Origin: Streptomyces flavofungini
GTDB taxonomy: Bacteria > Actinomycetota > Actinomycetes > Streptomycetales > Streptomycetaceae
DNA: 64,000 nt
Assembly (NCBI RefSeq): GCF_030388665.1
Contig: NZ_CP128846.1
Span: forward strand, 4,910,501-4,974,500
Direction of reading: 5' to 3'
Numbering within the stretch: the stretch's first letter is position 1; every line of letters starts with the position of its first letter. The position numbers were made by a program, and so were the translations under genes. Below are positions 29,502 through 48,343 of the stretch, one piece after another. The notes beneath the pieces are model-generated. The model was not told the origin of the DNA and made no database searches. It saw only the letters and a list, made by a program, of their open reading frames with translations.

Positions 29502-30272
29502 TCACGCGGGCACGCTCCACAGCGGCTCGTCCGCGGGTTCGATGCCCAGTTCGTCCCGGAGCAGGGTGCGCAGTGCCTGGAACGCGGTGCGGGCCTCGCC
29601 CCGGCGGCCCGACTCCCGCAGGGACGCGACGAGGGCCTGGTGGAACCACTCGTTGAAGGGGTGGGCGGCCACCAGGTCGCGCAGTTCGGGGACGAGCTGG
29701 CGGTGTCGGCCCGCGCGCATCTCCGCCTCGACGCGGATCCGCTGCGCGTGGATGCGCAACTCCTCCAGGTAGTCCACGTGGCCGGCGAGTACTCGGCCGG
29801 GGCGCAGCGTCGACAGGGCTCGGCCCCGCCACAGGGCCAGGGCCTCGTGGCAGGCGGAGGCTGCTTCGGCCGGGCGGTCCAGAGCGAGCAGCCGCTCGCC
29901 CTCCTTGCTCAGGCGCACGAATCGGGTCGCGTCGAGCCGCTCGGGGTCGATGTCCAGGACATACCCGGCCTGCCGGGTGTGCAGCAGGTGGCGTGCGGGC
30001 GTGCCGAGTGCTTCGTCGAGCTGGCCGCGCAGGTGGTAGATGTGCGTCCGCACGGTGCTGACGGCCCAGCGGGGCGGACGCTCCTCCCACAGCTCGTCGA
30101 TGAACACATCGACGTCGACCACCTGGCCCAGGCGCAGCAGAAGCAGAGCCATCACCTTGTTCACCTTGGGGCCGCGCAGGGTGTGGGGGGTGCCGTCCAC
30201 GGTGAGGTGGAGGGCGCCCAGTACCGAGAAACGCTCGTGCGTGTCGTCGTTCACGGGCCGGAATACAAACAC
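29502..30272 (-). CDS. SARP-family pathway-specific activator
   Basis: The 256-residue protein is the small SARP type. The N-terminal OmpR-like winged helix (about 15-105) runs FSVLGALHLTVDGTPHTLRG then PKVNKVMALLLLRLGQVVDV. The bacterial transcriptional activation domain (about 110-250) has ATRFVRLSKEGERLLALD, then LALWRGRAL and LYHQAL-like FNEWFHQALVASLRESGRRG. SARPs activate antibiotic and metabolite clusters by binding direct repeats near -35 elements. The gene is divergent from the monooxygenase operon with an 83-bp gap that contains an 11-bp direct repeat at 22-bp spacing. It is the left-most intact gene of the island. Confidence 0.92.
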   Translation of the reverse strand: MFVFRPVNDDTHERFSVLGALHLTVDGTPHTLRGPKVNKVMALLLLRLGQVVDVDVFIDELWEERPPRWAVSTVRTHIYHLRGQLDEALGTPARHLLHTRQAGYVLDIDPERLDATRFVRLSKEGERLLALDRPAEAASACHEALALWRGRALSTLRPGRVLAGHVDYLEELRIHAQRIRVEAEMRAGRHRQLVPELRDLVAAHPFNEWFHQALVASLRESGRRGEARTAFQALRTLLRDELGIEPADEPLWSVPA

Positions 30273-31904: not shown

Positions 31905-33002
31905 GTGCTGATATCTGAATTCTCGAAATCTCCGCTACGTGTTGTGCTGTTCGCGGACGGTGCTTTCTCTCATCCCGAGGGAAAGACCGCCCAGGGTGTC
32001 CTGCGGCACAGCACATGGCTCCGGCCCGTGGCGGTGATCGACCGCTCCCACACGGCCCCGACCACGGCATCCGTGGTCCCCGGGACCGACGTGCCGGTCG
32101 TCGGGTCACTCGCGGAAGCCATACGGTTCGAGCCGGACGCGCTGGTCGTGGCACTGACCGAGTCCGACTTCGGGGAGTCGGTCGACGGTAAGTTCCTGCA
32201 TACGCCCCGGGAACCGGGTGACCTCCCAGATTTCTGGTGGGACACCATACGTACCGCCGTGCGCGACGGCCTCCACGTCATTTCCTGTCTGCATGTGCGC
32301 CTCCGCGAAACGGAACTGGTCGACCTGCTCGCCGACGGCCGGGAAATAGTCGACGTCAGGCGTCCGTACGAGAATTTGCCAAAATATTCCGGACGTCGTC
32401 GCCGCACCCGGGCCAGGCTCATTCACATCGCGGGCAGCGACTGCGTCGTGGGCAAGCGCACAGCCGCGTTGCAGATACACCGGGAAGCCCTCTCCCGGAA
32501 CATTGACTCCGGCTATGTGGGGACGGGCCAGACCTGTCTGCTCGCCGGGTGCACCGAGGGAGCCATCATCGACAGGACCCCGGTGTTCCAGGCGGCCGGA
32601 CTCGTGGAGCACCTCGTCCAGCGTGCGGACCCGCGCCACGACCTGCTGGTCATCAAGGGGCAGGCGTCCGTCATGCACCCGGCCTTCGGAGGCCTGGCCA
32701 CCGCGATCCTCCAGGGCTCCCAGCCGGACGCGGTGATCTTCGCCCACGACCCGGACCGTGGGGCTCGCTACCACTGGGACCATCTGCCGCTGGCGGACCT
32801 GGAGACCGAGCTGCGCATGGTCGAGCAGCTCGGCGGCGCTCCGGTCGCCGCGATCGCGACGCGCGGCCGGGAGAACGTACGGCGCCTTGCCGCCCTCGGG
32901 CTGCCGGTCGCCGACGTCCTGGACGGCGATGGCGCGGCGGTGCTGCTCGACGCGGCGCGGCGCGTCTGGGCCGGCCCGCGGGAGACCAGGGGAGCGCTGT
33001 GA
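31905..33002 (+). CDS. DUF1611 family P-loop protein (DgcN-like)
   Basis: The 365-residue protein has an N-terminal Rossmann-like domain (about 1-150: RVVLFADGAFSHPEGKTAQG, then PDALVVALTESDF) and a C-terminal P-loop-like domain (IHIAGSDCVVGKRTAALQIH, then GYVGTGQTCLLAGCTEGAII). This is the two-domain DUF1611 architecture. A DUF1611 member, DgcN, has been described as a D-glutamate N-acetyltransferase, so amino-acid acylation is one possibility. The nucleotide loop here reads GSDCVVGKR. Start is GTG 31905, 4 bp after the monooxygenase stop; the stop overlaps the SMP-30 start (GTGA). In a biosynthetic cluster its role is undefined. Confidence 0.82.
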   Translation: MLISEFSKSPLRVVLFADGAFSHPEGKTAQGVLRHSTWLRPVAVIDRSHTAPTTASVVPGTDVPVVGSLAEAIRFEPDALVVALTESDFGESVDGKFLHTPREPGDLPDFWWDTIRTAVRDGLHVISCLHVRLRETELVDLLADGREIVDVRRPYENLPKYSGRRRRTRARLIHIAGSDCVVGKRTAALQIHREALSRNIDSGYVGTGQTCLLAGCTEGAIIDRTPVFQAAGLVEHLVQRADPRHDLLVIKGQASVMHPAFGGLATAILQGSQPDAVIFAHDPDRGARYHWDHLPLADLETELRMVEQLGGAPVAAIATRGRENVRRLAALGLPVADVLDGDGAAVLLDAARRVWAGPRETRGAL

Positions 33003-33847
33003 CGGTCGAGGTGGTTCTGCGCGCGGCGGCGGCGTTCGGTGAGTGCCCGACGTGGGACGCGGCGGACGGGTCGCTGCTCTGGGTGGACCTGAACCGGTGC
33101 GAGGCACATCGGCTGCGTCCCGCGGACGGCAGCGACACGGCGCTGCGGTTCGACCAGCCCGTCGCCGCGGCCAAGCCCCGGGCGGGCCGGGCGGGCGGTC
33201 TGGTGCTGACCCTCCGGGACGGGGTGGCGGTAACGGGGCCCGACGGGGCGGTGCGCATGGTCACGGATTGGTCGGCCGAAGGGGTGCGGGGGAACGACAC
33301 CGGCGTGGACCGCCGGGGCCGCCTCTGGGTCGGCACCGTCGCCGGGGACGTCGCGCCGGGGTGGCTGGGACGGCTCTCGGGGGACGGGGCGACACACCGG
33401 GTGGTGACGGACACCCGGCTGAGCAACGGCATCGCCTGGAGCCCGGACGACCGCCGGATGTACTTCGTGGACACCCCCACGCGCCGCGTCGACGTGCTCG
33501 ACTACGACCTCGCGTCCGGCACGGCCGTGAACCGGCGCCCGTTCGTGGACCTCGCCGACGTCGAAGGGGTGCCCGACGGCCTGTGCGTCGACGCCGACGG
33601 CGGTGTGTGGGTGGCGCTCTTCCGGGGTGGCGCCGTCCGGCGCTACACCCCGGAGGGCCGTCTCGACAGGGAGATCCGCTTCCCCGTCTCGCTCACCACC
33701 GCGTGCGGCTTCGGCGGCCCCGACCTGACCGAGCTGTACGTGACCTCGGCGCGTCGCGCACCCGACCACGACGAGCCACTCGCGGGCAGCGTGTTCGTGG
33801 TGACCGGGGTCGGCCAGGGCGTCGCGGCGCCCGCCTTCGCTGGCTGA
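32999..33847 (+). CDS. SMP-30/gluconolactonase-family lactonase
   Basis: The 282-residue protein is a six-bladed beta-propeller of the SMP-30/regucalcin family. Likely divalent-metal ligands are the Glu in FGECPTWD, the Asn in LSNGIAWSPD and the Asp in PDGLCVDADGG. LLWVDLNRCEAHR and GGVWVALFRGG are blade motifs. Family members hydrolyse sugar lactones and other lactones. As third gene of the monooxygenase operon, it might open a lactone made by Baeyer-Villiger oxidation or tune the level of a lactone signal; both are inferences. Its stop codon lies within a palindrome shared with the convergent gene. Confidence 0.9.
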   Translation: MTVEVVLRAAAAFGECPTWDAADGSLLWVDLNRCEAHRLRPADGSDTALRFDQPVAAAKPRAGRAGGLVLTLRDGVAVTGPDGAVRMVTDWSAEGVRGNDTGVDRRGRLWVGTVAGDVAPGWLGRLSGDGATHRVVTDTRLSNGIAWSPDDRRMYFVDTPTRRVDVLDYDLASGTAVNRRPFVDLADVEGVPDGLCVDADGGVWVALFRGGAVRRYTPEGRLDREIRFPVSLTTACGFGGPDLTELYVTSARRAPDHDEPLAGSVFVVTGVGQGVAAPAFAG

Positions 33848-35734: not shown

Positions 35735-35742
35735 CGAGTGCC

Positions 35743-36299: not shown

Positions 36300-36403
36300 C
36301 GAGCCGTTAGCTGAGATGGACAAGCGGGTCCTGGGCGGCAGCCATGGCAGGTCGCCGCTCTGCGTCGCCCGCGGGTCACAGGGGACGTACTCAGGAGGCT
36401 CGG

Positions 36404-37573
36404 GTGGGGACACCGCAGGTGGGGACAGTTCGGCGGGCAGCGCCACAGCTCGGGGAGCGGCGACCGGCACCGGCCGTCCCGGACGTCCTCGACCGGTATC
36501 GCGACGCCCTGCGCAGCGCGGGCAGTCCCCTCGGTGCGCGTCCGGAACTGTGGCAGGACGCCGCCGAACAGGCCGCGGTGATCCTCGCCGACCACGAGGC
36601 GCGTGCGGACAGCACGGACCAGGCCCGAGCGGGCGACCGCGCGGAGGTCTCCGCTGCGCTCGGCGCCCGGTGGGCCGCCGCGGGAGTCGGGCTTGCCGAC
36701 TGCCTCGGCGCCACCGAGTACCTCGCGGACGCCGCGCTCGCCCGCTCCTCGGCTCGCCGATGGGCCGCCGCGGGGCCGGATGCCGCGGACGCGCTCCACC
36801 GGGTGATCTCCCGGCACAACCGGGCCACCGCCCGCGGCTACGAAGAGCGGCTGCGGGCCGACGCCCGGAGCCGGGACGCCGACTGCTGCGGACGCCTGGC
36901 CCGCGACGTCCATGACCATCTGGGCAGCAGCCTCGCCCTGGCCCTGCGCCAACTCGAGCTGTACCGCGTCAGGACGAGGGCCACGACCGCGCACGCGGCC
37001 GACGGCGAACGCCACCTCCGCGCACTCCACGACGCGCTCGGTCAGGCCGCGGACCTCACCCGTGGCCTTGTCTCGGGACTGCGCACGGTGCAAACGGCGG
37101 CGGACACCGGCCTGGGCCAGTCACTGCGGGACTGCGCCGCGCAACTGGACCCGGCACCGGACGGCCCGGCGGTGCGGGTGCGGGTGACGGTGGAGGGAGA
37201 CGAGGCGAGGCTCCCGCCGGGCCACCGTCGGGAACTGTTCCTGATCCTGCGGGAGTTCCTGCGCAACTCCTTCACCCACGCCGATCCCAGCACTGTCGCG
37301 ATCGGCCTCCGCGTCCGGCCCGCAGGCGTCGAGGTCCACGCTGTCGACGACGGCCGAGGCTTCTCCTACGGGGCAGTGCGAGAGCACGGCGGCGGACTGA
37401 CGGCCGTACGCGAACGGGCGTCCCGGCTCGGCGGACGGTGCGTGCTGCTCAGCACACCGGGCGACGGCACCCGACTGCTGCTGTGGGTGCCGCTTCCCGG
37501 CAGCCGCCGTCCGCAGGAGGAAGAGCGGCGGAGTGCGTATGAGGAGGCGGCATGGATCCCATCCGCATCCTGA
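36404..37573 (+). CDS. Cytoplasmic sensor histidine kinase
   Basis: The 389-residue kinase has no membrane segment. An N-terminal helical domain of about 150 residues (VLDRYRDALRSAGSPLGARP, then EVSAALGARWAAAGVGLADC) resembles RsbRD/NarX-like input domains. A HisKA_3 block follows with RLARDVHDHLGSSLALALRQ (phospho-acceptor H170), then a GHKL ATPase domain (LREFLRNSFTHADPSTVAIG, VDDGRGFS, GGGLTAVRERASRLGGR). GTG 36404 is selected because AGGAGG ends 5 bases upstream; an upstream ATG at 36344 lacks one. Its end overlaps the response regulator by 22 bp. It must sense an intracellular cue or a partner protein. Confidence 0.88.
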   Translation: MGTPQVGTVRRAAPQLGERRPAPAVPDVLDRYRDALRSAGSPLGARPELWQDAAEQAAVILADHEARADSTDQARAGDRAEVSAALGARWAAAGVGLADCLGATEYLADAALARSSARRWAAAGPDAADALHRVISRHNRATARGYEERLRADARSRDADCCGRLARDVHDHLGSSLALALRQLELYRVRTRATTAHAADGERHLRALHDALGQAADLTRGLVSGLRTVQTAADTGLGQSLRDCAAQLDPAPDGPAVRVRVTVEGDEARLPPGHRRELFLILREFLRNSFTHADPSTVAIGLRVRPAGVEVHAVDDGRGFSYGAVREHGGGLTAVRERASRLGGRCVLLSTPGDGTRLLLWVPLPGSRRPQEEERRSAYEEAAWIPSAS

Positions 37574-38325
37574 TCGCCGACGACCACACGCTGTTGCGCG
37601 ACGCGCTGGCAGAACTGCTCGACACCGAGGAGGACTTCGAGGTCGTCGGGGTCGCCGGTGACGTGTCCGAGACGCTCGGCCTGGTCGCCGAGCTGGACCC
37701 GCACGTACTGCTCCTCGACATCGAGATGCCGGGCAACCAGCATCCGCCGAGCACCGTGCGGCACCTGCGCCAGCTGGCTCCGGGGCTACGGATCCTGCTG
37801 CTGACCATGCATGACGACCCTCGGCTCGTCCAGGCGCTGCTGCCTCTCGGCATCCGAGGGTTCCTGCACAAGACGGTGAGCCACCAGTCCCTCGCGGGCA
37901 CGGTGCGCGACGTGTGCGCGGGCGGCAGCCGGGTCACTGTCTCCTTGTCCGCGGAGAGCCTGGCCGCGCCCGAACCCGACGGCGGCGGGGTGCTGTCCGC
38001 AAGGGAGACGCAGGTGGTGGAACTGGCCGCGAGCGGACTGAGCAACTACCGGATCGCCCGGCGGCTCTCCATCGCCGAGGGAACCGTCAAACGCCATATG
38101 CGCAACATCTTCGGCAAGTTGAGTGCGGGCTCACGGGTGGAAGCGGCGAACAAGGCCGTGGAACTGGGCCTGATCGCGCCGCCGGTGGCGGTGCCGCGGG
38201 CAGGGTCCCGGGTCGGCCGGCAGCACCGGCCCGCGCCCGGGGAGCCTGCCGCCGCGCGGCAGGCCGGGGTTCAGATGCCCATGCCGATGCCACCGCCCAC
38301 CGGCAACACCGCGCCGGTCACATAG
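37552..38325 (+). CDS. NarL/LuxR-family response regulator
   Basis: The 257-residue protein has a receiver domain with acidic pair D10/D11, phospho-acceptor D56 in LLLDIEMPG and switch Lys in GFLHKTV. The LuxR-type helix-turn-helix is SARETQVVELAASGLSNYRI, then EGTVKRHMRNIF. The last 45 residues are Pro/Ala-rich and run antisense over the end of the convergent ketoreductase gene by 55 bp, so the tail is probably not functional. It starts inside the kinase gene (22-bp overlap), so the two are co-translated. It probably controls the cluster. Confidence 0.92.
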   Translation: MDPIRILIADDHTLLRDALAELLDTEEDFEVVGVAGDVSETLGLVAELDPHVLLLDIEMPGNQHPPSTVRHLRQLAPGLRILLLTMHDDPRLVQALLPLGIRGFLHKTVSHQSLAGTVRDVCAGGSRVTVSLSAESLAAPEPDGGGVLSARETQVVELAASGLSNYRIARRLSIAEGTVKRHMRNIFGKLSAGSRVEAANKAVELGLIAPPVAVPRAGSRVGRQHRPAPGEPAAARQAGVQMPMPMPPPTGNTAPVT

Positions 38326-38975
38326 CCCGCCTGCTCCGACGCCAGGAACCGGACGGCCGCGGCGACCTCCTCGGCCGTACCCGGCCGGCCCAGTGGAGTC
38401 ATCCCCATGACCTGCCGCATCCGGCGCTCGCTCAGTGCACTGGTCATATCGGTCTCGATGATGCCGGGCGCCACCAGATTGACGGTGACACCCCGGCCTC
38501 CCAGTTCCCAGGCGAGCGAACGGCCGAAGCCGAGCAGCGCGGTCTTGGCGGCGGCGTAGTTGGTCTGCCCCGGCGAGCCCAGGAACCCCAGCGCGGACGA
38601 CACCAGCACGATCCGGCCCCGGCGCGCGGCCAGCATGCCGCCGGCCGCGGCCCGCACGGTGCGGAAGACCCCCTTGAGGTTGGTCTCGAGCACCTCGTCG
38701 AACGCCGCGTCGTCCATGCGTGGCAGCAGCGTGTCCCGGGTGATGCCGGCGCTGGCGATCAGGACCTCGACGGGCCCCTGCTCCCGGGCGACGGTGTCGA
38801 ACGCGGCGCGCACGGACTCCTCGTCGGTCACCTCGCACCGCACCCCGAGGAACCCCTCCGGCGGGGTGCCCGTGCGATGGCCGACGGCCACCCGGTCGCC
38901 GTCGGCCGCCATGGCCCGCGCCACGGCCAGACCGATTCCCCGATTGCCTCCGGTGACGAAAACAGAACGTGACAT
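38271..38975 (-). CDS. 3-oxoacyl-ACP reductase (FabG-like SDR)
   Basis: The 234-residue short-chain dehydrogenase is of FabG type. The NADP motif is TGGNRGIG (8-15), followed by IASAGITRD. Catalytic Ser, Tyr and Lys lie in LVSSALGFLGSPGQTNYAAA then KTALLGF, and GIIETDMTSAL and the C-terminal GYVTGAVLPVGGGIGMGI are typical. It should reduce a beta-ketoacyl-ACP made by the nearby ketosynthases. It forms a minus-strand pair with the KAS III-like gene 69 bp upstream and overlaps the convergent response regulator gene by 55 bp. Confidence 0.92.
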   Translation of the reverse strand: MSRSVFVTGGNRGIGLAVARAMAADGDRVAVGHRTGTPPEGFLGVRCEVTDEESVRAAFDTVAREQGPVEVLIASAGITRDTLLPRMDDAAFDEVLETNLKGVFRTVRAAAGGMLAARRGRIVLVSSALGFLGSPGQTNYAAAKTALLGFGRSLAWELGGRGVTVNLVAPGIIETDMTSALSERRMRQVMGMTPLGRPGTAEEVAAAVRFLASEQAGYVTGAVLPVGGGIGMGI

Positions 38976-39044
38976 ACGTACGCAGTCCTCCTAGGACGGT
39001 GAAGCCAGAACGAACCGGTGCGGACCGCACCGTGGGTGCGCGAC

Positions 39045-40097
39045 TCAGCGCCGCGGGGACTCGACCAGCAGGCATGACCAGGTGAAGCCCGCGCCCGCGC
39101 TGAACACCAGGGCGGCGTGGCCGGGCGCGGGCAGGCCCCGCCGCACCAGATCGGCGAGTCCCGCGAGGGCGTCGCCCGCGCCCAAGTGGCCCGTCGCACG
39201 TCCGAAGTCGAGCAGCTGCGCGTCCACGCACTGGGCGAGGACCGGGAGCCACGACTCGGTCAGCGTCTTCGCGCCGAACCGGGGCAGGACGACATGGCTC
39301 AGGCGCGGGTCGGACGCGGTCATTCCCGCGTCCGCCAGAGCCTCGGCCACGACCGTACGGATGGCCCGCTCGTTGGCCGTGGTGAAGGGCTCCACCCCGT
39401 TGACGCGCAGCCAGGATCGCTTGGTGGCACGCATGTCGACCCGCTCGCGCAGGTCGCGCGCGGCCGGCATGAAGGGGTCCGTGCCGCGGTGCATCTCCTC
39501 CAGCTCCGGGTCCGCGTACGTCGCGACCGAGCGCAGGAGCAGGGCATCGCCGGGCACGGCCGGGCGACGCAGCACGACGGCCGTGCCGCCGTCCCCGTAC
39601 GCGACGCCGTAGTCGCTCGCCCAGCGGTCGAAGCCGGGCTCTGCGAACCGGTCCGCGGTGGTCACGAGCCCGAGCCGGGGGCGTGATGCCTCCGCGGAAT
39701 CCGCTGTGGCGAGCCACGCCGTGACAAACCCGAGGGCGGCCGCGCCGCCGTTGCAGACCTGCTGGACCCCGACGGGGAGGGCCCGCGGGGCCCCGAGCCG
39801 ACGTGCGACGTAGTGGGCGGGCGACCACAGGTCGTGCCCCTGGTGGTACATCCACGCATGGGCCAGCACCGCAAGGCGCTCGGCCGGCTCACCGGCCGCG
39901 TCCAGGGCCAGGTGCGCCGCGCGGACGGCGGCGTCGGGAGGGGCGGTGACGTCGGCGTCGGGCAGGGACTCGTGGCCCAGGTCCTCGGCCGCACGCTCGC
40001 GCAGGCGGCCGGCGGCGACCGCGTTCGAAGCGAGGGACCGCCCCTCGGGCAGCCACAGTCCGGCCGCCGCTATGCCGACCGGCTCCGTCGGTCTCAT
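39045..40097 (-). CDS. KAS III-like ketoacyl synthase/acyltransferase with altered triad
   Basis: The 350-residue protein has a thiolase fold. The nucleophile is C115 in GVQQVCNGGAAALGF. The usual FabH His (PHQAN motif) is replaced in LPRFGAKTL, and the usual Asn (GNTS) is replaced in ATGHLGAGDALAG, leaving H304 and D309 as candidates for a different Cys-His-Asp arrangement. Such deviating KAS III proteins either prime unusual starter units or act as acyltransferases (ChlB3/CerJ-like). It is divergent from the ACP-KS-CLF operon across 380 bp. The ATG at 40097 gives a family-like N-terminus (PVGIAAAGLWLPEG); a longer frame would translate the 15-bp repeats. Confidence 0.82.
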   Translation of the reverse strand: MRPTEPVGIAAAGLWLPEGRSLASNAVAAGRLRERAAEDLGHESLPDADVTAPPDAAVRAAHLALDAAGEPAERLAVLAHAWMYHQGHDLWSPAHYVARRLGAPRALPVGVQQVCNGGAAALGFVTAWLATADSAEASRPRLGLVTTADRFAEPGFDRWASDYGVAYGDGGTAVVLRRPAVPGDALLLRSVATYADPELEEMHRGTDPFMPAARDLRERVDMRATKRSWLRVNGVEPFTTANERAIRTVVAEALADAGMTASDPRLSHVVLPRFGAKTLTESWLPVLAQCVDAQLLDFGRATGHLGAGDALAGLADLVRRGLPAPGHAALVFSAGAGFTWSCLLVESPRR

Positions 40098-40124
40098 CCC
40101 CGCACCACCCCGCCCCTTTTCCAC

Positions 40125-40184
40125 CTGGTCGTCGTGCTCCCGGTCGTGTTCCAACCGGTCGTTTCGCACCTGATCGTTTCCATC
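40125..40184. repeat. Four tandem 15-bp repeats in the divergent KAS III/ACP promoter region
   Basis: The units start at 40125, 40140, 40155 and 40170. Each carries GGTCGT (last copy GATCGT) at the same place, with consensus CCGGTCGTnTTCCAn. They sit 28 to 87 bp upstream of the KAS III start. The remaining 380-bp gap (40098-40477) has no gene; GGAGG at 40466-40470 is the ACP ribosome binding site. Confidence 0.8.
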
Positions 40185-40477
40185 GCGGGAATGCTTGAAG
40201 GGCCCGATGAAAACGCGGGCAAAAGCGAGCCGACCAGGAGCGCGTGCCCGTTGCGGGACTCCTATGGAGGGCGCGGTGCCGCCCTTCGGGGACACCCCCG
40301 ATGGCACTTTGGAAGTGCTTGTCGCTGCCTCTGCCTCCGGGATTGGCTGACGCAGACCCACCGGGGAGCCGCGGAGCCGCCCCGGACCGCGGTCTCACAC
40401 AGGCCAACGGGCTTGTTCCGCAGATCAATTCGGCCGGCCCGTTCGGCGGACTGACCGATCGATTCGGAGGGCAGGAC

Positions 40478-40750
40478 ATGAGCGACATCGTCATATCGGA
40501 GGAGCAGCGCGAGAGGGTGCGTGCCGTCGTGGCGGACGTACTCGAGGCGGACCTCGACGCGCTGACCGACCGGAGCAGCTTCGCCGACGACTTCGAGGCC
40601 GACTCGCTGCTGGTCATCGAGATCTTCTCGCGCTTCGAGCGGGACCTCGGCATCAAGATCCCACAGGAGGCCATGACCGAGCTGGACGATCTGCCCAGCG
40701 CCTACGCCCTGGTCGCCGCGCACAGCGCCCCGGAGGCGCTGGGTGTCTGA
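40478..40750 (+). CDS. Acyl carrier protein
   Basis: The 90-residue ACP has the phosphopantetheine attachment Ser S43 in FEADSLLVIEIFSRFE, an intact DSL motif, and the usual acidic helices (VVADVLEADLDALTDRSSFA before it). It carries the growing acyl chain for the ketosynthase pair next to it. The ATG at 40478 has GGAGG at 40466-40470; the open frame extends upstream without family similarity. Its stop overlaps the GTG start of the ketosynthase by 8 bp, so the first three genes (ACP, KS, CLF-like) are a coupled operon. Confidence 0.93.
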   Translation: MSDIVISEEQRERVRAVVADVLEADLDALTDRSSFADDFEADSLLVIEIFSRFERDLGIKIPQEAMTELDDLPSAYALVAAHSAPEALGV

Positions 40751-41981
40751 CAAGGCCGCCGATGCCGGGCGCCGGGTCGTGGTGACCGGGCTCGGCGCGG
40801 TGAGCGGTCTCGGTCTCGGCGCCCGCGCGTTCACCGCGGCGATCAGGGCCGGACGCGGCGGCATCGGGCCCGTCGAGCAGTTCGACGCGACGGGTTTCGA
40901 ACGGTCCCTCGCCGGTGAAGTGCGCGGATTCCACCCGGAGATGCACCTGCGCGGGACCGACCCGGCACGGTGGGGCCGCAGCGGCCGGTTCGCCGCCGCG
41001 GCCGCCCGGATGGCGGTACTGGACGCGGGGATCGACCAGCGGGAGCTGTCCGCCCTGCGCACCGCGAGCTGCTTCGGCACGACGAACGGCGAGTCTCAGG
41101 TCGTCGAGCGGCTGACGGAGCGGTGGGTGACGGACGGCGGCCTCGCCGGCCTCGACCCCGTCCTCGCCGGGCAGGCGGATGCCGGCCGGATCGCGGCGGC
41201 GGTCAGCGCCGAGCTGGATCTGAGCGGCGAGGCCCTGACCTTCGGCACCGCGTGTGCCGCGAGCAACTACGCCATCGGGTACAGCTTCGACCTCATCCGC
41301 ACGGGAGAGGCGGACGCGGTGCTGTGCGGTGGGGCGGACGCTTCCAACCGGGCCACCCACGCCGGGTTCCACCGCCTCGGCGCCCTCGCCGCGGATGTTC
41401 CGCGCCCCTTCGACGAGCGGCGCGACGGCATCGTCACCTCCGAGGGCGGTGCGGCGCTGCTCCTCGAACCGCTCGACGCGGCCCTCGCACGCGGTGCCCG
41501 CGTCTACGCCGAGGTGCTCGGCTACGGCATGACGTGCGACGCGCGGCACATGACCAACCCGGATGCGGTGTCCATCGCCGAGTGCATCCGGCGCGCCCAC
41601 CACAACGCGGGGGTCAAGCCCGGCGACGTCGACTACATCTGCGCGCACGGCACCGGAACGCGGGCCAACGACGCCACCGAGACGGCGGCCGTGCGCGAGG
41701 TTTTCAACGACTCTCCGCCACCGATCAGCTCCATCAAGTCGATGCTGGGCCACACGATGGGCGCCGCGGCCGGGTTCGGCGCCCTGGCGTGCTGCGCCGC
41801 CCTCTTCGAAGGCTTCCTGCCGCCGACCGCGACGGTGCGCCAGGTCGACTCGGCCCTCGGCCCGGACCTCGACTGCGTCCCCGGGCAGGCCCGGGCCGCG
41901 CGGCCACGCGTCGCGCAGAACCATGGATTCGCCTTCGGCGGCAACAACGCCGTCACGATGTTCGGGGGGTTCTCCCGATGA
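40743..41981 (+). CDS. Beta-ketoacyl-ACP synthase (KS-alpha, FabF-like)
   Basis: The 412-residue ketosynthase has a complete active site: C171 in TFGTACAASNYAIGY, H302 in CAHGTGTRANDATET, K332 and H337 in SSIKSMLGHTMGAAAG. VVVTGLGAVSGLG at the N-terminus and NHGFAFGGNNA at the C-terminus are typical. It would condense malonyl-ACP with an acyl chain. The GTG start overlaps the ACP stop, and its own stop overlaps the next gene by ATGA, the classic KS-CLF coupling of type II polyketide and highly reducing type II systems. No cyclase or aromatase lies nearby, so an aliphatic product is more likely than an aromatic one. Confidence 0.92.
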   Translation: MSDKAADAGRRVVVTGLGAVSGLGLGARAFTAAIRAGRGGIGPVEQFDATGFERSLAGEVRGFHPEMHLRGTDPARWGRSGRFAAAAARMAVLDAGIDQRELSALRTASCFGTTNGESQVVERLTERWVTDGGLAGLDPVLAGQADAGRIAAAVSAELDLSGEALTFGTACAASNYAIGYSFDLIRTGEADAVLCGGADASNRATHAGFHRLGALAADVPRPFDERRDGIVTSEGGAALLLEPLDAALARGARVYAEVLGYGMTCDARHMTNPDAVSIAECIRRAHHNAGVKPGDVDYICAHGTGTRANDATETAAVREVFNDSPPPISSIKSMLGHTMGAAAGFGALACCAALFEGFLPPTATVRQVDSALGPDLDCVPGQARAARPRVAQNHGFAFGGNNAVTMFGGFSR

Positions 41982-43135
41982 GGACTGTCGACAGGACGCC
42001 CGGCGTGGCCACCGCCGCTCCGGCGCGACCGGTGGCCCCGGTCGACCTCGTGGCGGCGGGCGTGATCAGTGCCGCCGGGGTGGGCCTTGACGCGCTCGGC
42101 GACGCCCTGCGCGCGGGCCGGGCCGAGGGCGGCCGGCCGGACGCCGCCCGGGACACGGAGACGTACCCGCCCGTCGAACTGCGCGCGGCCGACTTCGCGG
42201 CCGTCGACCTCCTCGGGCGCAAGGGCCTGAGCCGGCTGACTCGGGCCGACCAGCTCGGCGCGGCCGCGTGCGGTCTGGCGCTCGATTCGGTCGCCGACCC
42301 CGCAGGGACCGGTGTGGTACTCGGCACGTCGCTGGGCAGCGCCGGCGCGGTCGCCAGGTTCGCCCGGGACACCTTCGTCCAGGAGCGCCCCTACCTGGTG
42401 AATCCCTCGGACTTCCCGGGGACGCTGATGAACTCGGCGGCCGGGCGCACCGCCATCCGCCATCGCCTCACCGACGTCAACGCGACCGTCTCAGGCGGCC
42501 CGCTGGCGTCCCTGCACGCGCTGCGCTACGCACGCCAGACCCTGCTGGCCGGCCACGCACGGCGGATCCTGGCGGGAGGCGTGGAGGAACTGTCCCCGCA
42601 GAGCGCCTGGGCCTGGCACCGCACGGGTGCCCTTGCTCCGCGCGTCGCCCTCGGCGAAGGTGCGGCGGTGTTCGCCCTGGAGTCCCCGGGTGAGCGGCGC
42701 GGTGCCGGGACGCCTCCCTTGGCCAGGCTCATGGTGTGCACCACCGGCTTCGCGGACGTCGCCCGCGGTGCCCTCGTGGTCGCCCATCGCCTCACCGCGT
42801 GCGTCGAGGGCGCCCTGCGACGTAGCGGCCTGACGGCGCAGGACGTGGCCGTCGTCGCTCCCGGTGCGGCCGGGCGGCGCGGATGGGCGGCGGTGGAGGA
42901 GCGGGCGTTGCGCGCCGCGCTGCCCGCCGCCGCGGACCGGCACCGTCTGCCGGTGCACGCGGTGCTCGGCGAGACCCATGGCGCGGGCGCCGCGCTCCAG
43001 GTGGCCGGGGTCCTCGCCCGCTGGCAGGACCCGCGGCTCGACACCCGGCACGAACACGCGGCACTCGTGACCTCGTGCGGACCGGACGGGTCGGTCGGCT
43101 GCGCCGTCCTCGTCCGCGCGAACGCCCCGGTGTGA
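41978..43135 (+). CDS. Ketosynthase-like chain-length-factor partner lacking the active-site Cys
   Basis: The 385-residue protein has the ketosynthase fold but no nucleophile. The segment equivalent to GTACAAS reads SGGPLAS, placing Pro about residue 175 where Cys should be. The first catalytic His block (AHGTGT) is absent, while a second His survives in LGETHGAGAALQVAG (H334). This matches chain-length factors (KS-beta), although those usually carry Gln at the Cys position. It overlaps the KS gene by ATGA, so a KS/CLF heterodimer is very likely. Length and N-terminal VDLVAAGVISAAGVG agree with the family. It should help set chain length. Confidence 0.82.
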   Translation: MRTVDRTPGVATAAPARPVAPVDLVAAGVISAAGVGLDALGDALRAGRAEGGRPDAARDTETYPPVELRAADFAAVDLLGRKGLSRLTRADQLGAAACGLALDSVADPAGTGVVLGTSLGSAGAVARFARDTFVQERPYLVNPSDFPGTLMNSAAGRTAIRHRLTDVNATVSGGPLASLHALRYARQTLLAGHARRILAGGVEELSPQSAWAWHRTGALAPRVALGEGAAVFALESPGERRGAGTPPLARLMVCTTGFADVARGALVVAHRLTACVEGALRRSGLTAQDVAVVAPGAAGRRGWAAVEERALRAALPAAADRHRLPVHAVLGETHGAGAALQVAGVLARWQDPRLDTRHEHAALVTSCGPDGSVGCAVLVRANAPV

Positions 43136-43251
43136 GGGGCCGCTTGCCCTGCGGGCGGCCGCACGCACACCCGGCGCCGTACACCACCCCCATATCCCCC
43201 ATATCCCCCTCCTCTTCTCCTCTTCGTCTGTTTCGTAAGGAACCCTTCTCC

Positions 43252-44319
43252 ATGCGCTACCGCTACCTCGGCCGCACCGGCCTCCAGGTCTCAGAGCTGT
43301 CGTTCGGAGCGGCCACCCTCGGCACTCCCGGCGCGTTCGGCGGCCTGCCCGGCGCCAACTGGTCCCAGTTCGGCGTCAACACCGGCGACGACGCCGTACG
43401 GCTCGTCCATGCCTGCCACGACGCCGGCGTCAACTTCTTCGACACGGCCGATGTCTACCGCGACGGCGAGTGCGAGGAGCTGCTCGGTCTGGCCCTCAAG
43501 GACCGCAGGGACAAGGCCGTCATCGCCACCAAAGCCCGCTTCCGCACCGACCCCGACGACATCAACGCGGCCGGCTCCTCCCGGCACCACCTCGTGCGTG
43601 CCGTGGAGGCCAGCCTCCGCCGCCTCGGTACCGACTACATCGACGTTCTCTACCTGCACGGCACCGACCCTCGCACCTCGCTGGAGGAGACCCTCGGTGC
43701 CCTTGACGACCTGGTGCGGGCCGGCAAGCTGCGCTACATCGGCTGCTCCAACTTCCCCGGTTGGCAGCTGATGAAGGCCTTGGACATCTCCGACCGCCGC
43801 GGCCTGGTCCGGTTCTCCGCCTACCAGGGCTACTACAACCTGGGCGCCAGGGAGCTGGAGCACGAGATCGTCCCCGCCGCCGTTGACCAGGGCGTGGGTG
43901 TCACTGTCTGGAGCCCGCTGGCCGGCGGCTTCTTCTCCGGCAAGTACCGGCGCGGCCAGGAAGTCCCCGAAACCTTCCGCCTGGCACACGAAGGACCCTC
44001 GGCCATCGCTCCGCTCACTGACCGCGAGCAGGCGTACGACGTGGTCGAGGTGCTGGACGGCATCGCGAAGGAACGAGGTGTCTCCGTCGCGCAGGTTGCC
44101 TTGAACTGGGTGCTGAGCAAGCCGGCCGTGACCTCGGTGGTGTTCGGCGCGAGTCGCCCGGACCAGCTCCGCGACAACCTCGGTGCTGTCGAGTGGGAGC
44201 TGACACCGGTCGAGACGGCACTCCTCGACACGGCGAGCGAGCGCCCCGCCCCGTACCCCTACTGGCACATGCGCGCGATCGCAGGCGACCGCGACCTTCC
44301 CGGCGACATCCTGCCCTGA
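43252..44319 (+). CDS. Aldo/keto reductase
   Basis: The 355-residue NADPH-dependent reductase has the (beta/alpha)8 AKR fold. The tetrad is Asp and Tyr in FFDTADVYRDGECEELLG, Lys in KAVIATKARF and His in VLYLHGTDPRTS. YIGCSNFPGWQ and VTVWSPLAGGFFSGKY are also typical. It could reduce a keto or aldehyde group of the cluster product. It is 116 bp downstream of the CLF gene after a pyrimidine-rich leader with repeated CATATCCCCC. The stop codon lies inside the first copy of a 7-bp tandem repeat. Confidence 0.92.
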   Translation: MRYRYLGRTGLQVSELSFGAATLGTPGAFGGLPGANWSQFGVNTGDDAVRLVHACHDAGVNFFDTADVYRDGECEELLGLALKDRRDKAVIATKARFRTDPDDINAAGSSRHHLVRAVEASLRRLGTDYIDVLYLHGTDPRTSLEETLGALDDLVRAGKLRYIGCSNFPGWQLMKALDISDRRGLVRFSAYQGYYNLGARELEHEIVPAAVDQGVGVTVWSPLAGGFFSGKYRRGQEVPETFRLAHEGPSAIAPLTDREQAYDVVEVLDGIAKERGVSVAQVALNWVLSKPAVTSVVFGASRPDQLRDNLGAVEWELTPVETALLDTASERPAPYPYWHMRAIAGDRDLPGDILP

Positions 44320-44362
44320 GCCCTGAGCCCTGAGCCCTGAGCCCTGAGCCCTGAGCCCTGAG
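44314..44362. repeat. Seven perfect copies of a 7-bp repeat at the AKR stop codon
   Basis: CCCTGAG is repeated seven times without a mismatch. Because the unit is 7 bp and contains TGA, the array places stop codons in all three forward frames within 21 bp. It separates the AKR gene from the MFS gene. Confidence 0.95.
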
Positions 44363-44428
44363 CCCGGCCCTCGCCCGGGCCGTCCCCCCTCGATCCACCT
44401 ACGTACGGACCCCACCAGGAGCACAGCC

Positions 44429-45628
44429 GTGCCCATTGCCGTGATCGCCCTCTCCCTCAGCGGTTTCGCCATCGGCGTCACCGAGTTCATCATCGCGGGC
44501 ATCCTGCCCGACATCGGATCCGACCTTGGCGTCTCCATCCCCACCGCGGGGCTGCTGGTGTCCGGATACGCGCTCGGCGTCGTCATCGGCGCCCCGCTCC
44601 TGACCGTGCTCTGCGCGCGCACCGAACGCAAGCGCCTGTTGATCCGGCTCATGGCGCTGTTCCTGATCGGCACGGTCGTGTCCGCCCTCGCGCCCACCTA
44701 CGGGGTGTTGATGGCGGGCCGCGTCCTGTCGGCGCTCGCCCACGGCGCCTTCTTCGGCGTCGCGATGGTGGTGGCCGCGGACCTCGTGGCCGGTGACCGC
44801 AAGGGCCGCGCGGTGTCCATGGTCGCCGCGGGCCTGACCATGTCCACCATCCTCGGCGTCCCGGCGGGAACCTTCATCGGGCAGAACTTCGGCTGGCGCT
44901 GGGCCTTCTGGATGGTCGCTCTCTTCGGAGCCGTCGGCCTCGCCGGCATTTCCGCGCTCGTGCCCAGGACTCCCGCGCCCGAGGGCACCGGCCTGCGCGG
45001 CGAACTGAGCGTGCTGCGCCGCCCCCAGGTGATCCTGGTGCTGCTGACCACCGTGCTCGGCTTCGGAGGTGTCATGACCTCGTACACCTACATCGCCGAA
45101 ATGGTCACCAAGGTCACTGGCTTCTCCGACGGTGCCGTCACCCTGATCATGGTCCTGTTCGGGGTCGGGATGTTCGTCGGCAACCTGATCAGTGGCCGAC
45201 TCGCGGACCGTGCCCCCAACAGCGCCATGTGCGGCTCGCTGGCCCTGCTCACCGTGGTCCTCGCGGTGTTCGTCCTCACCGTGCACGACAAGACGGCCAC
45301 CTGCGTGACCGTCTTCCTCTTCGGCGCCGCCACCTTCGCCACCATCTCGCCTCTCCAGATGCGGATCATGGCCAAGGCCGACGGAGCCCCCACCCTGGCC
45401 TCGGCGTCGAACATCGCCGCCTTCAACCTCGCCAACGCCGCGGGCCCGCTGCTCGGCGGCCAGATCATCCACGCCGGCCTCGGCTACCCGGCCCTCAACT
45501 GGGCGGGCGCCCTGGTGACCCTCGCCGGTCTGTTGCTCGCCGCACTCGGGGTGGCCGTCGAGCGCCGTGCCGACGCCGTGGCACCGGCCCCCGCCCCCGC
45601 CGTCACGAGCGGCTCAGCCGCCCACTGA
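44429..45628 (+). CDS. MFS transporter, DHA1 (AraJ/CmlA-like) family
   Basis: The 399-residue membrane protein has twelve predicted helices. Its start, SLSGFAIGVTEFIIAGILPD then LLVSGYALGVVIGAPLLTVL, is typical of DHA1 exporters. The loop motif ARTERKRLLI is present after helix 2, and SALAHGAFFGVAMVVAADLV is in helix 4. It probably exports the cluster product. Start is GTG 44429 with CCAGGAGC upstream. It sits between the aldo/keto reductase and the AfsA-like gene in one rightward run. Confidence 0.92.
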   Translation: MPIAVIALSLSGFAIGVTEFIIAGILPDIGSDLGVSIPTAGLLVSGYALGVVIGAPLLTVLCARTERKRLLIRLMALFLIGTVVSALAPTYGVLMAGRVLSALAHGAFFGVAMVVAADLVAGDRKGRAVSMVAAGLTMSTILGVPAGTFIGQNFGWRWAFWMVALFGAVGLAGISALVPRTPAPEGTGLRGELSVLRRPQVILVLLTTVLGFGGVMTSYTYIAEMVTKVTGFSDGAVTLIMVLFGVGMFVGNLISGRLADRAPNSAMCGSLALLTVVLAVFVLTVHDKTATCVTVFLFGAATFATISPLQMRIMAKADGAPTLASASNIAAFNLANAAGPLLGGQIIHAGLGYPALNWAGALVTLAGLLLAALGVAVERRADAVAPAPAPAVTSGSAAH

Positions 45629-45670
45629 CATCCGACCGCATCAACGATCCGCTACGAAAGGGCAGTCACA

Positions 45671-46657
45671 GTGGAAACCCAGGTCCTGGAGGCGCCCCCC
45701 GAGGCGCCCGGTTACGACCGGACCGTGTCCCGCGCCCTGGTGCACCGCTGGGCGCTGTCCGAGGTGTTCCTGACCGACTCGGTGTCCGTGGGTGACGGCC
45801 TCTTCGTCGCCGGTGCGCAACTCCCGCTCACCCACGGGTACTTCCGGGACCACATCCCCGGACGCCGCCACCACGATCCGCTGCTCGTCCTGGAGAGCTG
45901 CCGCCAGGCCGTGACGTATGCCTCCCACGTCCACGAGGGCGTATCCGCTGACACCACGTTCATGGTCACGTCCTGGACGCTGGACATCGCCGACCCGGCG
46001 GCCCTGAAGTGCGGCGAGCGCCCCGGGGAGCTGCGGATGGACGGGGAAGTCACCGACCGACGCAGGCGTGGCGGTCGGCTGCGGGGCCTGGCCTTCGCCA
46101 TGGATCTGACCCTGGACGGCCGCCCGCTCGGCAGGCTCACCATGGACACCAACTGCACGCCCACCGACCAGTACCACGCGCTGCGGCGGATGCAACGGGG
46201 CACGGCCGTGCCCACGGCCTTCGACCTCCCGGCCGACCCGGCCGGTGAGCCGGTGGAGCCCGCGCTGGTGTGCCGCCTCGACTCCGCGAACGCGGTCCTC
46301 GACGCGGTACGCCGACAGGGGGCGGCCCTGACCGCCCGGCTCAGCCCGCGCACGTACCGCAATCGCAGCATGTACGACCACCCCTACGACCACGTTCCCG
46401 CGATGGTGTTCAGCGAGGCGGCGCGGCAGTGCGGCCTGCTGCTCGGCGCCGACGCGAGCGCCGTCACCGGGTCCCCGCCGGACTCCGGCCCTCGCCGGGT
46501 CCTCAGGCTGCACGGGTCCTTCGTGAAGTTCGCCGAGCTGGACGCCGAGGTCCTGCTGAGCGCCGCACCGGAGGACGGAGCCGGGCCGGGTGCCTTCCGC
46601 ATGGCAGCCGTGCAGGGGGACGAGACGGTCGCGGAGGTGCGCGTCACGCTCGGCTGA
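45671..46657 (+). CDS. AfsA-family gamma-butyrolactone/butenolide-type synthase
   Basis: The 328-residue protein has two hotdog domains as in AfsA, ScbA, BarX and MmfL. The first shows VSRALVHRWALSEVFLTDSV then HGYFRDHIPGRRHHDPLLVL and ESCRQA. The second shows MYDHPYDHVPAMVFSEAARQ then VLRLHGSFVKFAELDAEVLL. AfsA-type enzymes condense a beta-ketoacyl thioester with dihydroxyacetone phosphate, the first step to A-factor-like butyrolactones and methylenomycin furans. GTG 45671 follows GAAAGGG. A HAD phosphatase gene follows 78 bp downstream, as would be needed to dephosphorylate the product. No ArpA/TetR receptor gene is present in the island, which is unusual. Confidence 0.92.
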   Translation: METQVLEAPPEAPGYDRTVSRALVHRWALSEVFLTDSVSVGDGLFVAGAQLPLTHGYFRDHIPGRRHHDPLLVLESCRQAVTYASHVHEGVSADTTFMVTSWTLDIADPAALKCGERPGELRMDGEVTDRRRRGGRLRGLAFAMDLTLDGRPLGRLTMDTNCTPTDQYHALRRMQRGTAVPTAFDLPADPAGEPVEPALVCRLDSANAVLDAVRRQGAALTARLSPRTYRNRSMYDHPYDHVPAMVFSEAARQCGLLLGADASAVTGSPPDSGPRRVLRLHGSFVKFAELDAEVLLSAAPEDGAGPGAFRMAAVQGDETVAEVRVTLG

Positions 46658-46667
46658 GCCACCGCCT

Positions 46668-46710
46668 TCCCTTCCCCTTCCCCTTCCCCTTCCCCCTCCC
46701 CCCTCCCTTC
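46668..46710. repeat. Pyrimidine tract with TTCCCC repeats
   Basis: A run of about 40 pyrimidines contains four to five copies of TTCCCC between the AfsA-like and phosphatase genes. A similar pyrimidine-rich stretch precedes the AKR gene (about 43188-43235). I see no hairpin. Confidence 0.8.
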
Positions 46711-46735
46711 AGCCCCGACCGCACTCGGAGTTCTT

Positions 46736-47422
46736 GTGATCACCCCACCGTTGCCTTCGGCGACCGCCGTCGCGTTCTTCGACGTCGACGAGACGCTGAC
46801 CACCGTCAAGACCATGTTCGACTTCTACGACTTCTTCCTGGCCGCCGTCGGCCACAGCGAGGAGGAGCAGGCCCGGCTGCGGGACGACGCCCGCGCCCTG
46901 CTGCTCCCGGGCCTGCCCCGGGAGCAGGGCAACCGCCTGTTCTACCGGCGGTTCGCGGGCTACAAGGCCGAGCAGGTCGACGCCGCGGGCGAGGCCTGGT
47001 TCGACCGGCACCTTGAACGCGGTGGGTTCTTCCACCGTGACGTCCTCGACGCCTTGCGGGAGCACCGGGCGGCGGGCCTGGCCACGGTGCTGGTCTCGGG
47101 CTCCTTCCAGGGCTGCCTGGGGCACGTCGCTGCGTACGTGGGGGCGGACGCGGTGCTGTGCACCCGGCCCGAGATCCGAGACGGCGAGTACACCGGCGAC
47201 GTACTGGAGACCATGATCGGCGACGCCAAGGCGCGGGCCGCCCGCGCCCTCCTCGCGGAGCGCGGCATCGCACCGGAGCACTGCCACGCGTACGGCGACC
47301 ACACCTCCGACCTGGAGCTGCTCCGCCTCGTGGGCCACCCGGTGGTCGTCGGCTCGCATCCGGACATGGTGGCCGAGGCCGCCCGCAACGACTGGCGCCG
47401 CCTGCCCGGCGTACCCGGCTGA
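46736..47422 (+). CDS. HAD-superfamily phosphatase (subclass IB)
   Basis: The 228-residue protein has HAD motif I in AFFDVDETLTTVKTMFDFYD, motif II Ser in ATVLVSGSFQG, and motif III/IV in CHAYGDHTSDLELL with AKARAARALLAERG before it. Subclass IB enzymes (SerB-like) hydrolyse small phosphate esters. Next to an AfsA homologue, the natural role is removal of the phosphate left from dihydroxyacetone phosphate, as proposed for MmfP in methylenomycin furan synthesis. Start is GTG 46736. A broken AMP-ligase gene follows after 26 bp. Confidence 0.9.
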   Translation: MITPPLPSATAVAFFDVDETLTTVKTMFDFYDFFLAAVGHSEEEQARLRDDARALLLPGLPREQGNRLFYRRFAGYKAEQVDAAGEAWFDRHLERGGFFHRDVLDALREHRAAGLATVLVSGSFQGCLGHVAAYVGADAVLCTRPEIRDGEYTGDVLETMIGDAKARAARALLAERGIAPEHCHAYGDHTSDLELLRLVGHPVVVGSHPDMVAEAARNDWRRLPGVPG

Positions 47423-47448
47423 CTGTCCCCCTGCACAGAGACCGAGCG

Positions 47449-48269: not shown

Positions 48270-48286
48270 GTGCCCCCAACGGGATT
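48270..48286. other. Putative right attachment site within tRNA-Glu 3' end
   Basis: GTGCCCCCAACGGGATT contains the last 16 bases of the tRNA-Glu gene (minus strand) plus one base. It matches 29048-29064 in 16 of 17 positions and in the same orientation, so the pair delimits about 19.2 kb. Confidence 0.6.
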
Positions 48287-48343
48287 CGAACCCGTGCTAC
48301 CGCCTTGAAAGGGCGGCGTCCTGGGCCACTAGACGATGAGGGC
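48271..48343 (-). tRNA. tRNA-Glu (anticodon TTC)
   Basis: This 73-nt minus-strand gene has acceptor stem GCCCTCA paired with TTGGGGGC-type bases (one G-T wobble), anticodon loop CTTTCAA, T-loop GTTCGAA and discriminator A. Its 3' end lies at the right border of the accessory island. Confidence 0.95.

What the first reader, a model, noticed from the sequence alone, without database searches (positions are those of the whole stretch)
38271..47422. AfsA-type synthase and HAD phosphatase joined to a dedicated ACP/KS/CLF-like/KAS III set
AfsA enzymes usually borrow a beta-ketoacyl chain from primary fatty acid synthesis. Here an ACP, an intact ketosynthase, a Cys-less partner, a deviating KAS III, a ketoreductase and an aldo/keto reductase sit beside an AfsA homologue and a HAD phosphatase, all between one exporter and its regulators. 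I infer a self-contained route: build a chain of defined length, condense with dihydroxyacetone phosphate, dephosphorylate, reduce, export. This would be an unusual lactone or butenolide system, either as a signal or as an end product.
Basis: partly seen in the sequence, partly recalled or inferred. Interest (0 to 1): 0.85.

Follow-up and report, generated by a model that had tools for sequence, protein, structure and literature searches.

The report
Polyketide line ending in butenolide synthase
A Streptomyces gene cluster joins its own small polyketide assembly set to an enzyme family best known for making bacterial hormones; relatives in several actinomycete genera keep the same pairing, which points to an undescribed group of exported lactone or furan natural products rather than to a hormone.

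Summary
In detail: KR, KAS III-like, ACP, KS, CLF, AKR, MFS, AfsA and HAD genes lie at 38271-47422. KS keeps Cys/His/Lys/His, the CLF lacks the Cys, the KAS III is DpsC/ChlB3/CerJ-like, and AfsA keeps its family's residues. It is not a chance neighbourhood: of 12 loci found with AfsA alone (six genera), 11 carry KAS3-ACP-KS-CLF. In midpoint-rooted quick trees the 25 AfsA-linked KSs fall in one group of 31 rows, and the 25 CLF-linked AfsAs in one of 28. AfsA distances follow KS, CLF, KAS3 and KR. HAD directly follows AfsA in 24 of 25. One ScbR query found no receptor in the window; the genome's only match lies beside another AfsA, 362 kb away. Best reading: a type II PKS whose chain AfsA releases with a C3 phosphate, then dephosphorylated, tailored and exported as an end product. 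The chemistry is inferred; no product is known. Precedents: gladiofungin (AfsA domain on a modular PKS), methylenomycin and sphydrofuran (AvrD with own ACP/KAS III). Four paper searches did not show a KS-CLF/AfsA pairing.

The parts
29502..30272 (-). SARP-family activator (BTAD + Trans_reg_C)
   Evidence: relatives in the fetched stretches of L036, L037, L038, L047, L048, L076
30356..31900 (+). FAD-dependent monooxygenase (FAD_binding_3)
   Evidence: 82% in L047, 69% (cut by the fetched stretch) in L073; FMO-like hit within 13 kb of AfsA in 43 of 75 places, but only 10 of the 25 CLF-linked ones
31905..33002 (+). DUF1611 protein; near relatives L073 (=L045) and L074 keep it (81-82%)
33035..33847 (+). 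SMP-30/gluconolactonase-like (SGL) protein; exact start not settled
   Evidence: ORF 32549-33847, PF08450 1.5e-73
36344..37573 (+). sensor histidine kinase
37552..38325 (+). LuxR-type response regulator
38271..38975 (-). ketoreductase (FabG-like SDR)
   Evidence: 78-90% in 10 of 12 loci
39045..40097 (-). KAS III-like starter enzyme of the DpsC/ChlB3/CerJ kind; Cys, His, Asp kept, Arg at the HQAN His position
   Evidence: DpsC 5.2e-58, ChlB3 1.7e-40, CerJ 4.6e-37
40478..40750 (+). acyl carrier protein with DSL motif
40743..41981 (+). ketosynthase, intact active site; nearest solved chain 6kxd_A (KS of a KS-CLF pair)
41978..43135 (+). chain length factor-like partner without the Cys; nearest solved chain 6kxd_B
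43252..44319 (+). aldo/keto reductase
   Evidence: between CLF and AfsA in L045, L047, L074 (C-terminal part in L044), not in the other named loci
44429..45628 (+). MFS exporter, near Cmx/CmrA and AraJ families but under their cut-offs
45671..46657 (+). AfsA-family (ScbA/BarX-like) protein, proposed chain-releasing butenolide synthase
46736..47422 (+). HAD-IB phosphatase; last conserved gene of the cluster

Best explanation
A dedicated type II polyketide synthase makes a short beta-ketoacyl chain and AfsA takes it off the carrier. Proposed steps: the DpsC-like KAS III loads a starter acyl group; KS-CLF extends it on the ACP with malonyl units; the KR reduces some keto groups but leaves the last beta-keto; AfsA condenses the beta-ketoacyl-ACP with dihydroxyacetone phosphate (or a near C3 phosphate) to a phosphorylated butenolide; the HAD phosphatase removes the phosphate; the aldo/keto reductase and the FAD monooxygenase tailor the product; the MFS protein exports it. 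The product is an end product (lactone or furan), controlled by the two-component system and the SARP. Shown here: gene content, kept active-site residues, and co-inheritance of AfsA with KS, CLF, KAS III and KR. Inferred: every reaction, the order of steps, the chain length and the product.
For: 11 of 12 loci found with AfsA alone carry KAS3-ACP-KS-CLF beside it. The 25 AfsA-linked KSs lie in one group of 31 rows (SH-aLRT 97), apart from 15 KSs without AfsA; the label needs 5 changes against 15.3 in shuffles. The 25 CLF-linked AfsAs lie in one group of 28 rows (SH-aLRT 91). Distance correlations over 13 loci: AfsA with KS 0.78, CLF 0.82, KAS3 0.75, and over 12 loci with KR 0.82; none of 5000 permutations as high. 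HAD directly downstream of AfsA in 24 of 25. AfsA shares 15 of 16 tested conserved residues with the MmfL-position protein of a methylenomycin cluster. KS and CLF nearest to the 6kxd pair. One ScbR query found nothing in the window; the genome's only match is adjacent to another AfsA. An AfsA domain is needed for gladiofungin, where release with DHAP is proposed (PMC7756420, passages).
Against: No product, mutant or enzyme assay. Locus L076 carries KR-KAS3-ACP-KS-CLF with a PF00698 acyltransferase gene where AfsA-HAD would be, so the KS set can exist without AfsA. L044 keeps AfsA, HAD and MFS but lacks the KS set. 6 of 31 rows of the AfsA-rich KS group have no AfsA within 9 kb (one, L086, is an 8-kb contig). 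No dehydratase was found in the window cluster although its KS-CLF is nearest to a polyene-type pair. AfsA-HAD distances correlate only weakly (0.41; 93 of 5000 permutations as high), though HAD-KS is 0.69 (0 of 5000). The correlations are not corrected for the organisms' own relatedness. One of 12 type A HADs (and 21 of 66 HADs overall) has Gly for the second Asp of motif I. FMO and AKR lie within 13 kb in only 10 of 25 CLF-linked loci each (some stretches are short, and the window's own FMO lies just beyond that limit). AfsA scores 196.7 against a cut-off of 200 for the ScbA/BarX equivalog.
Confidence: 0.62

Rival explanations
1. AfsA-HAD makes a gamma-butyrolactone or butenolide hormone from a fatty-acid-derived chain, and the hormone switches on an independent type II PKS cluster.
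For: AfsA is classically a hormone synthase (recalled); it nearly reaches the ScbA/BarX cut-off; HK/RR and SARP regulators are present; L048 has an ScbR-like gene about 9 kb from AfsA, and 7 of 75 AfsA places have one within 10 kb.
Against: No ScbR-like gene was found in the window (one query) and the only one in the genome at E 1e-10 sits beside another AfsA, 362 kb away. None of the 12 loci has one within 10 kb in the stretch held. AfsA groups with the CLF-linked rows, away from the MmfL-position protein and the ScbR-linked rows, and tracks the enzymes.
Confidence: 0.18
2. The AfsA homologue, a double hotdog protein, acts as the missing dehydratase or as a cyclase of the polyene-type KS-CLF, not as a C3-condensing enzyme.
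For: No FabZ or MaoC type dehydratase was found among the window cluster proteins scanned although the nearest solved KS-CLF is of a polyene system; dehydratases are hotdog proteins (recalled); AfsA tracks KR and KS.
Against: Tested family residues are the same as in the MmfL-position protein at 15 of 16; a HAD phosphatase directly follows AfsA in 24 of 25, which fits a phosphorylated intermediate; L085, L087 and L088 have both MaoC proteins and AfsA.
Confidence: 0.1
3. The cluster is decaying or silent in this strain, and the neighbouring genes no longer make one product.
For: Degenerate NRPS adenylation piece directly downstream; L044 shows that clusters of this kind do break.
Against: The cluster genes are open, and the active-site residues tested in KS, KAS III, HAD and AfsA are present; DNA similarity to relatives ends at the HAD stop, so the broken gene lies outside.
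Confidence: 0.06

Closest known systems
Gladiofungin PKS (Burkholderia gladioli, GlaE AfsA domain)
   Same: AfsA domain takes the chain off a PKS; DHAP and a phosphatase are proposed (PMC7756420, passages)
   Different: There AfsA is part of a modular trans-AT PKS; here it is a free protein with a KS-CLF pair
Methylenomycin cluster (mmy), read here in S. anthocyanicus plasmid L133
   Same: Dedicated ACP and KAS III, butenolide synthase, HAD-IB hydrolase (46% to the window HAD) and MFS exporter; MmyD is proposed to condense acetoacetyl-ACP with a pentulose (PMC12593393, passages)
   Different: Uses an AvrD protein (PF05655), not AfsA; no KS-CLF and no FabG-like KR annotated in the stretch read; its AfsA protein (MmfL position, 27% to the window AfsA) sits beside an ScbR gene, and mmfL directs hormone production (PMC12593393)
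Sphydrofuran cluster (S. ambofaciens GI-9)
   Same: AvrD protein, ACP, two KAS III, one KS, aldo/keto reductases, FAD monooxygenase and MFS in one island; inactivating the AvrD gene abolished two metabolites, one identified as sphydrofuran (PMC11195616, passages)
   Different: AvrD instead of AfsA; histidine phosphatase instead of HAD; no CLF listed
Highly reducing (polyene) type II PKS, KS-CLF structure 6KXD (name Iga11-Iga12, ishigamide: recalled)
   Same: Nearest solved relatives of KS (1.7e-113) and CLF (2.2e-35); ACP and KR present
   Different: No dehydratase found in the window cluster; AfsA-HAD added
AfsA/ScbA-ScbR hormone systems
   Same: AfsA family, conserved residues
   Different: No receptor gene found nearby; AfsA groups with KS-CLF-linked relatives

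Membership tests
AfsA (A-factor synthase) family | two AfsA hotdog domains (PF03756) | tested here: met
   135.1 bits, 2 stretches
AfsA (A-factor synthase) family | conserved polar residues of the family | tested here: met
   at 16 positions picked as conserved, the window agrees with the MmfL-position protein at 15
ScbA/BarX hormone synthase equivalog (NCBIfam NF041195) | score over curated cut-off 200 | tested here: not met
   196.7 bits, just below
GBL hormone system | ArpA/ScbR-type receptor gene nearby | tested here: not met
   no hit in the window with one ScbR query; only genome hit at E 1e-10 lies beside another AfsA
AfsA (A-factor synthase) family | condensation of a beta-ketoacyl thioester with DHAP | not testable with these tools
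   needs enzyme assay
Type II PKS, KS-CLF | KS with Cys/His/Lys/His and a partner lacking the Cys encoded beside it | tested here: met
   gene overlap KS/CLF
Highly reducing type II PKS | KR and dehydratase in the cluster | tested here: not met
   KR present; no dehydratase among proteins scanned (not every small ORF was scanned)
FabH-type condensing KAS III | Cys-His-Asn triad | tested here: not met
   Cys kept, Arg at the HQAN His in 13 of 13 type A loci, His in the Asn region; nearest to DpsC/ChlB3/CerJ
Methylenomycin-type butenolide pathway | AvrD-family synthase | tested here: not met
   PF05655 in L133; the window protein matches PF03756 only
Modular PKS with terminal AfsA domain | AfsA fused to a PKS | tested here: not met
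   separate 328-aa protein

The most novel reading that the evidence does not exclude
A whole branch of type II PKSs (KS-CLF) uses a free-standing AfsA protein plus HAD phosphatase as its standard way to release and cap the chain with a glycerol-derived C3 unit, giving a class of polyketide butenolides, butyrolactones or furans not yet isolated; such AfsA proteins, annotated as hormone synthases, are chain-release enzymes of end products in several actinomycete genera.
Probability: 0.55. Interest if true: 0.75.

Novelty: new variant of a known kind. Interest (0 to 1): 0.6.

Why it matters
It would give type II PKSs an off-loading route parallel to the one known from a modular PKS, predict a compound class from sequence, and warn that an 'AfsA / gamma-butyrolactone synthase' annotation need not mean a hormone system: of 61 AfsA places in loci chosen by AfsA alone (the nearest relatives of the window AfsA, so not a random sample), 38 have a KS-like hit within 9 kb and 5 an ScbR-like hit within 10 kb. 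The clusters are compact (about 10-18 kb) and testable in standard Streptomyces hosts.

Tried and rejected
Hormone reading: lowered, see rivals. The broken ORF at 47.4-48.0 kb as a cluster gene: rejected, similarity to relatives stops at 47423 and the piece matches NRPS proteins. P0051, an apparent AfsA-HAD fusion: rejected as evidence; read by eye, the end of its AfsA region looks out of frame, so a frameshift may explain the join. ScbA active-site numbers from the literature: the search gave nothing, so only conservation is used. Structure prediction of AfsA was not obtained; no solved AfsA relative at E up to 1. Chain length and starter could not be predicted. Cispentacin-type KS (AmcF): the window KS scores 179.4 against a cut-off of 325, not followed further.

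Sampling: of the 98 stretches scanned (window included), L036-L047, L048, L050, L051, L060-L064 and L093-L132 were chosen by AfsA (61 AfsA places), L049, L052, L054-L059 and L065-L092 by KS (13 AfsA places), so the pooled rates are not population rates; one search gives them apart. In one search the distance limit was 9 kb for KS, CLF and KAS III but 6 kb for ScbR; with 10 kb the ScbR count is 7 of 75.
Full report
What is there. The window is part of a 9.36-Mb genome of 4 contigs. Between 38271 and 47422 lie KR and KAS III-like genes on the minus strand and ACP, KS, CLF, AKR, MFS, AfsA and HAD genes on the plus strand. ACP/KS overlap by 8 bases and KS/CLF by 4. To the left are HK and RR (36344-38325), an SGL protein, a DUF1611 protein, a FAD monooxygenase (30356-31900) and a SARP (29502-30272).

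Active sites. KS keeps Cys, His, Lys, His in 13 of 13 clusters of the window's kind ('type A': window, L036-L043, L045-L047, L074). The CLF has Pro (11) or Ala (2) at the Cys position. The KAS III has Cys in 13 of 13, Arg at the HQAN His, and His and Asp in the motif GHLGAGD in 13 of 13. In the HAD, motif I, Ser, Lys and motif IV residues are present in the window; the second Asp of motif I is Gly in 1 of 12 type A HADs and 21 of 66 overall (all). By sequence the KAS III is nearest to DpsC, ChlB3 and CerJ, so acyl loading is likelier than condensation (inference; the roles of these three enzymes are recalled). KS and CLF are nearest to the two chains of 6kxd, which PMC10698177 cites as a typical KS-CLF complex (first part and passages seen). 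AfsA agrees with the MmfL-position protein of L133 at 15 of 16 conserved positions tested.

Not chance. A scan of genome contigs with AfsA alone gave 12 loci, 59-75% identical, in Streptomyces, Nocardiopsis, Actinorugispora, Marinitenerispora, Allonocardiopsis and Amycolatopsis. 11 of 12 carry KAS3-ACP-KS-CLF in the same order; KR is adjacent in 10 of 12; HAD follows in 10 of 12 at 60-75%, in L038 as a 37% relative of the L048 HAD, and in L041 the contig ends after AfsA. The exception L044 has a deletion that joins part of the HK gene to the end of the AKR gene; AfsA, HAD and MFS remain. In 392 genomes of the genus, 22 KS matches of at least 60% identity were listed; 14 of these have an AfsA match within 9 kb (compared by eye; the AfsA list is cut, so this is a lower bound). 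Assuming about four AfsA-like genes per 8.5-Mb genome, the chance rate would be about 1% each (rough; the rows are related).

Wider set. 98 stretches (window included) were scanned by tblastn. KSs with at least 60% identity: 28, of which 22 have AfsA within 9 kb and 21 AfsA and HAD; KSs of 48-60%: 18, of which 3 have AfsA. Of 75 AfsA places, 25 have a CLF, 52 a KS-like and 52 a KAS III-like hit within 9 kb; 5 have an ScbR-like hit within 6 kb, 7 within 10 kb. Counting only loci chosen by AfsA: 61 places, 12 with CLF, 38 KS, 45 KAS III, 45 HAD, 5 ScbR within 10 kb; among the 46 AfsA places taken from genus genomes by rank below the window's own branch, none has a CLF within 9 kb, so the KS-CLF pairing belongs to particular branches, not to AfsA at large. 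In the 25 with CLF: HAD directly downstream in 24, KR in 25 (in L043 only a 32% match), ACP in 21, DpsC-like KAS III in 18, FMO and AKR within 13 kb in 10 each, SnoaL-like cyclase in 8, MaoC in 3. Several arrangements occur, for example L048, a linear plasmid of Streptomyces sp. ADI95-16, with added acyl-CoA carboxylase, SnoaL, MaoC and phosphopantetheinyl transferase genes.

Trees. KS tree (46 rows): all 25 AfsA-linked rows within one group of 31 (SH-aLRT 97); 15 rows without AfsA outside; 5 changes of the label against 15.3 in shuffles, 0 of 500 as low. AfsA tree (77 rows): all 25 CLF-linked rows within one group of 28 (SH-aLRT 91, below the starred level); the other three are L044 (deletion), L108 (stretch ends at the contig end) and L110 (short contig); the MmfL-position protein falls in the other half. 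Both are quick trees without bootstrap, rooted at the midpoint for drawing, and both carry long-branch warnings. Distance correlations for type A loci: AfsA-KS 0.78, AfsA-CLF 0.82, AfsA-KAS3 0.75 (13 loci); AfsA-KR 0.82 (12 loci); none of 5000 permutations as high; AfsA-HAD 0.41 (12 loci), 93 of 5000 as high; HAD-KS 0.69, 0 of 5000. They are not corrected for the relatedness of the organisms.

Signal or end product. With one ScbR query no receptor gene was found in the window. The only genome match at E 1e-10 is at C1:4593596-4594180, beside another AfsA (4594419-4595273), 362 kb away. The exporter resembles Cmx/CmrA and AraJ transporters, under their cut-offs. Together with the co-inheritance this favours an end product.

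Results against. L076 has the KS set with an acyltransferase gene in place of AfsA-HAD. Six of 31 rows of the KS group lack AfsA within 9 kb (L049, L076, L084, L086, L089, L092). No dehydratase and no malonyl transacylase were found among the window cluster proteins scanned. AfsA is just below the ScbA/BarX cut-off. An apparent AfsA-HAD fusion, P0051, may be a frameshift and is not used.

Known relatives. The methylenomycin cluster, read in an S. anthocyanicus plasmid (L133), has AvrD, KAS III, ACP, a HAD-IB hydrolase 46% identical to the window HAD, and an MFS exporter; its MmfP-position HAD is 40% and its MmfL-position AfsA 27% identical to the window proteins (mmy/mmf names assigned here from gene order and recall). 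PMC12593393 (passages) reports that mmyD deletion abolishes the product. PMC11195616 (passages) reports an AvrD cluster with ACP, KAS III, KS, aldo/keto reductases, FAD monooxygenase and MFS that makes sphydrofuran. PMC7756420 (passages) reports the AfsA release domain of gladiofungin and proposes DHAP. Four searches for AfsA or butenolide together with type II PKS, CLF or KS terms gave no paper whose listing describes this pairing (listings of 68 and 86 were cut to 20 of 61 and 15 of 18); subscription journals are mostly not held, so this is weak evidence of absence.

Verdict. A real, conserved biosynthetic module; a new variant of known butenolide-forming pathways. The reactions and the product remain inferred.

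Noticed in passing
window 47570-47848: Degenerate NRPS-like piece in shifted frames between HAD and a tRNA-Glu gene (48269-48343); outside the conserved cluster.
   Followed up: partly
L044 7413-8693: A deletion joins part of the histidine kinase gene to the end of the aldo/keto reductase gene; the KS set is gone while AfsA, HAD and MFS remain. An assembly fault is not excluded.
   Followed up: partly
L076 11982-13145: A PF00698 acyltransferase gene stands after CLF where relatives have AfsA-HAD.
   Followed up: partly
L050 6956-12924: AfsA-HAD-MFS-FAD monooxygenase-AKR run without ketosynthases on a Rhodococcus fascians plasmid.
   Followed up: no
L060-L063, L093-L103: A second group of AfsA loci with DpsC-like and other KAS III, a distant KS, often KR, FAD monooxygenase, AKR and HAD, but no CLF; products unknown to me.
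   Followed up: no
L064, L105, L111, L113, L114, L116, L119: An aldo/keto reductase about 59-63% identical to the window's stands next to AfsA in loci without CLF.
   Followed up: no
window 33858-36213: DUF6545 protein and an ORF without Pfam match (35743-36213) on the minus strand between the SGL gene and the kinase; DUF6545 kept in L073 and L074.
   Followed up: no
G000:C1:60585-60962: A third, weaker AfsA-family match in the same genome.
   Followed up: no
window 44314-44362 and 46666-46706: Short repeats upstream of the MFS gene (CCCTGAG units) and of the HAD gene (CCCTTCC-like units), seen in the sequence.
   Followed up: no
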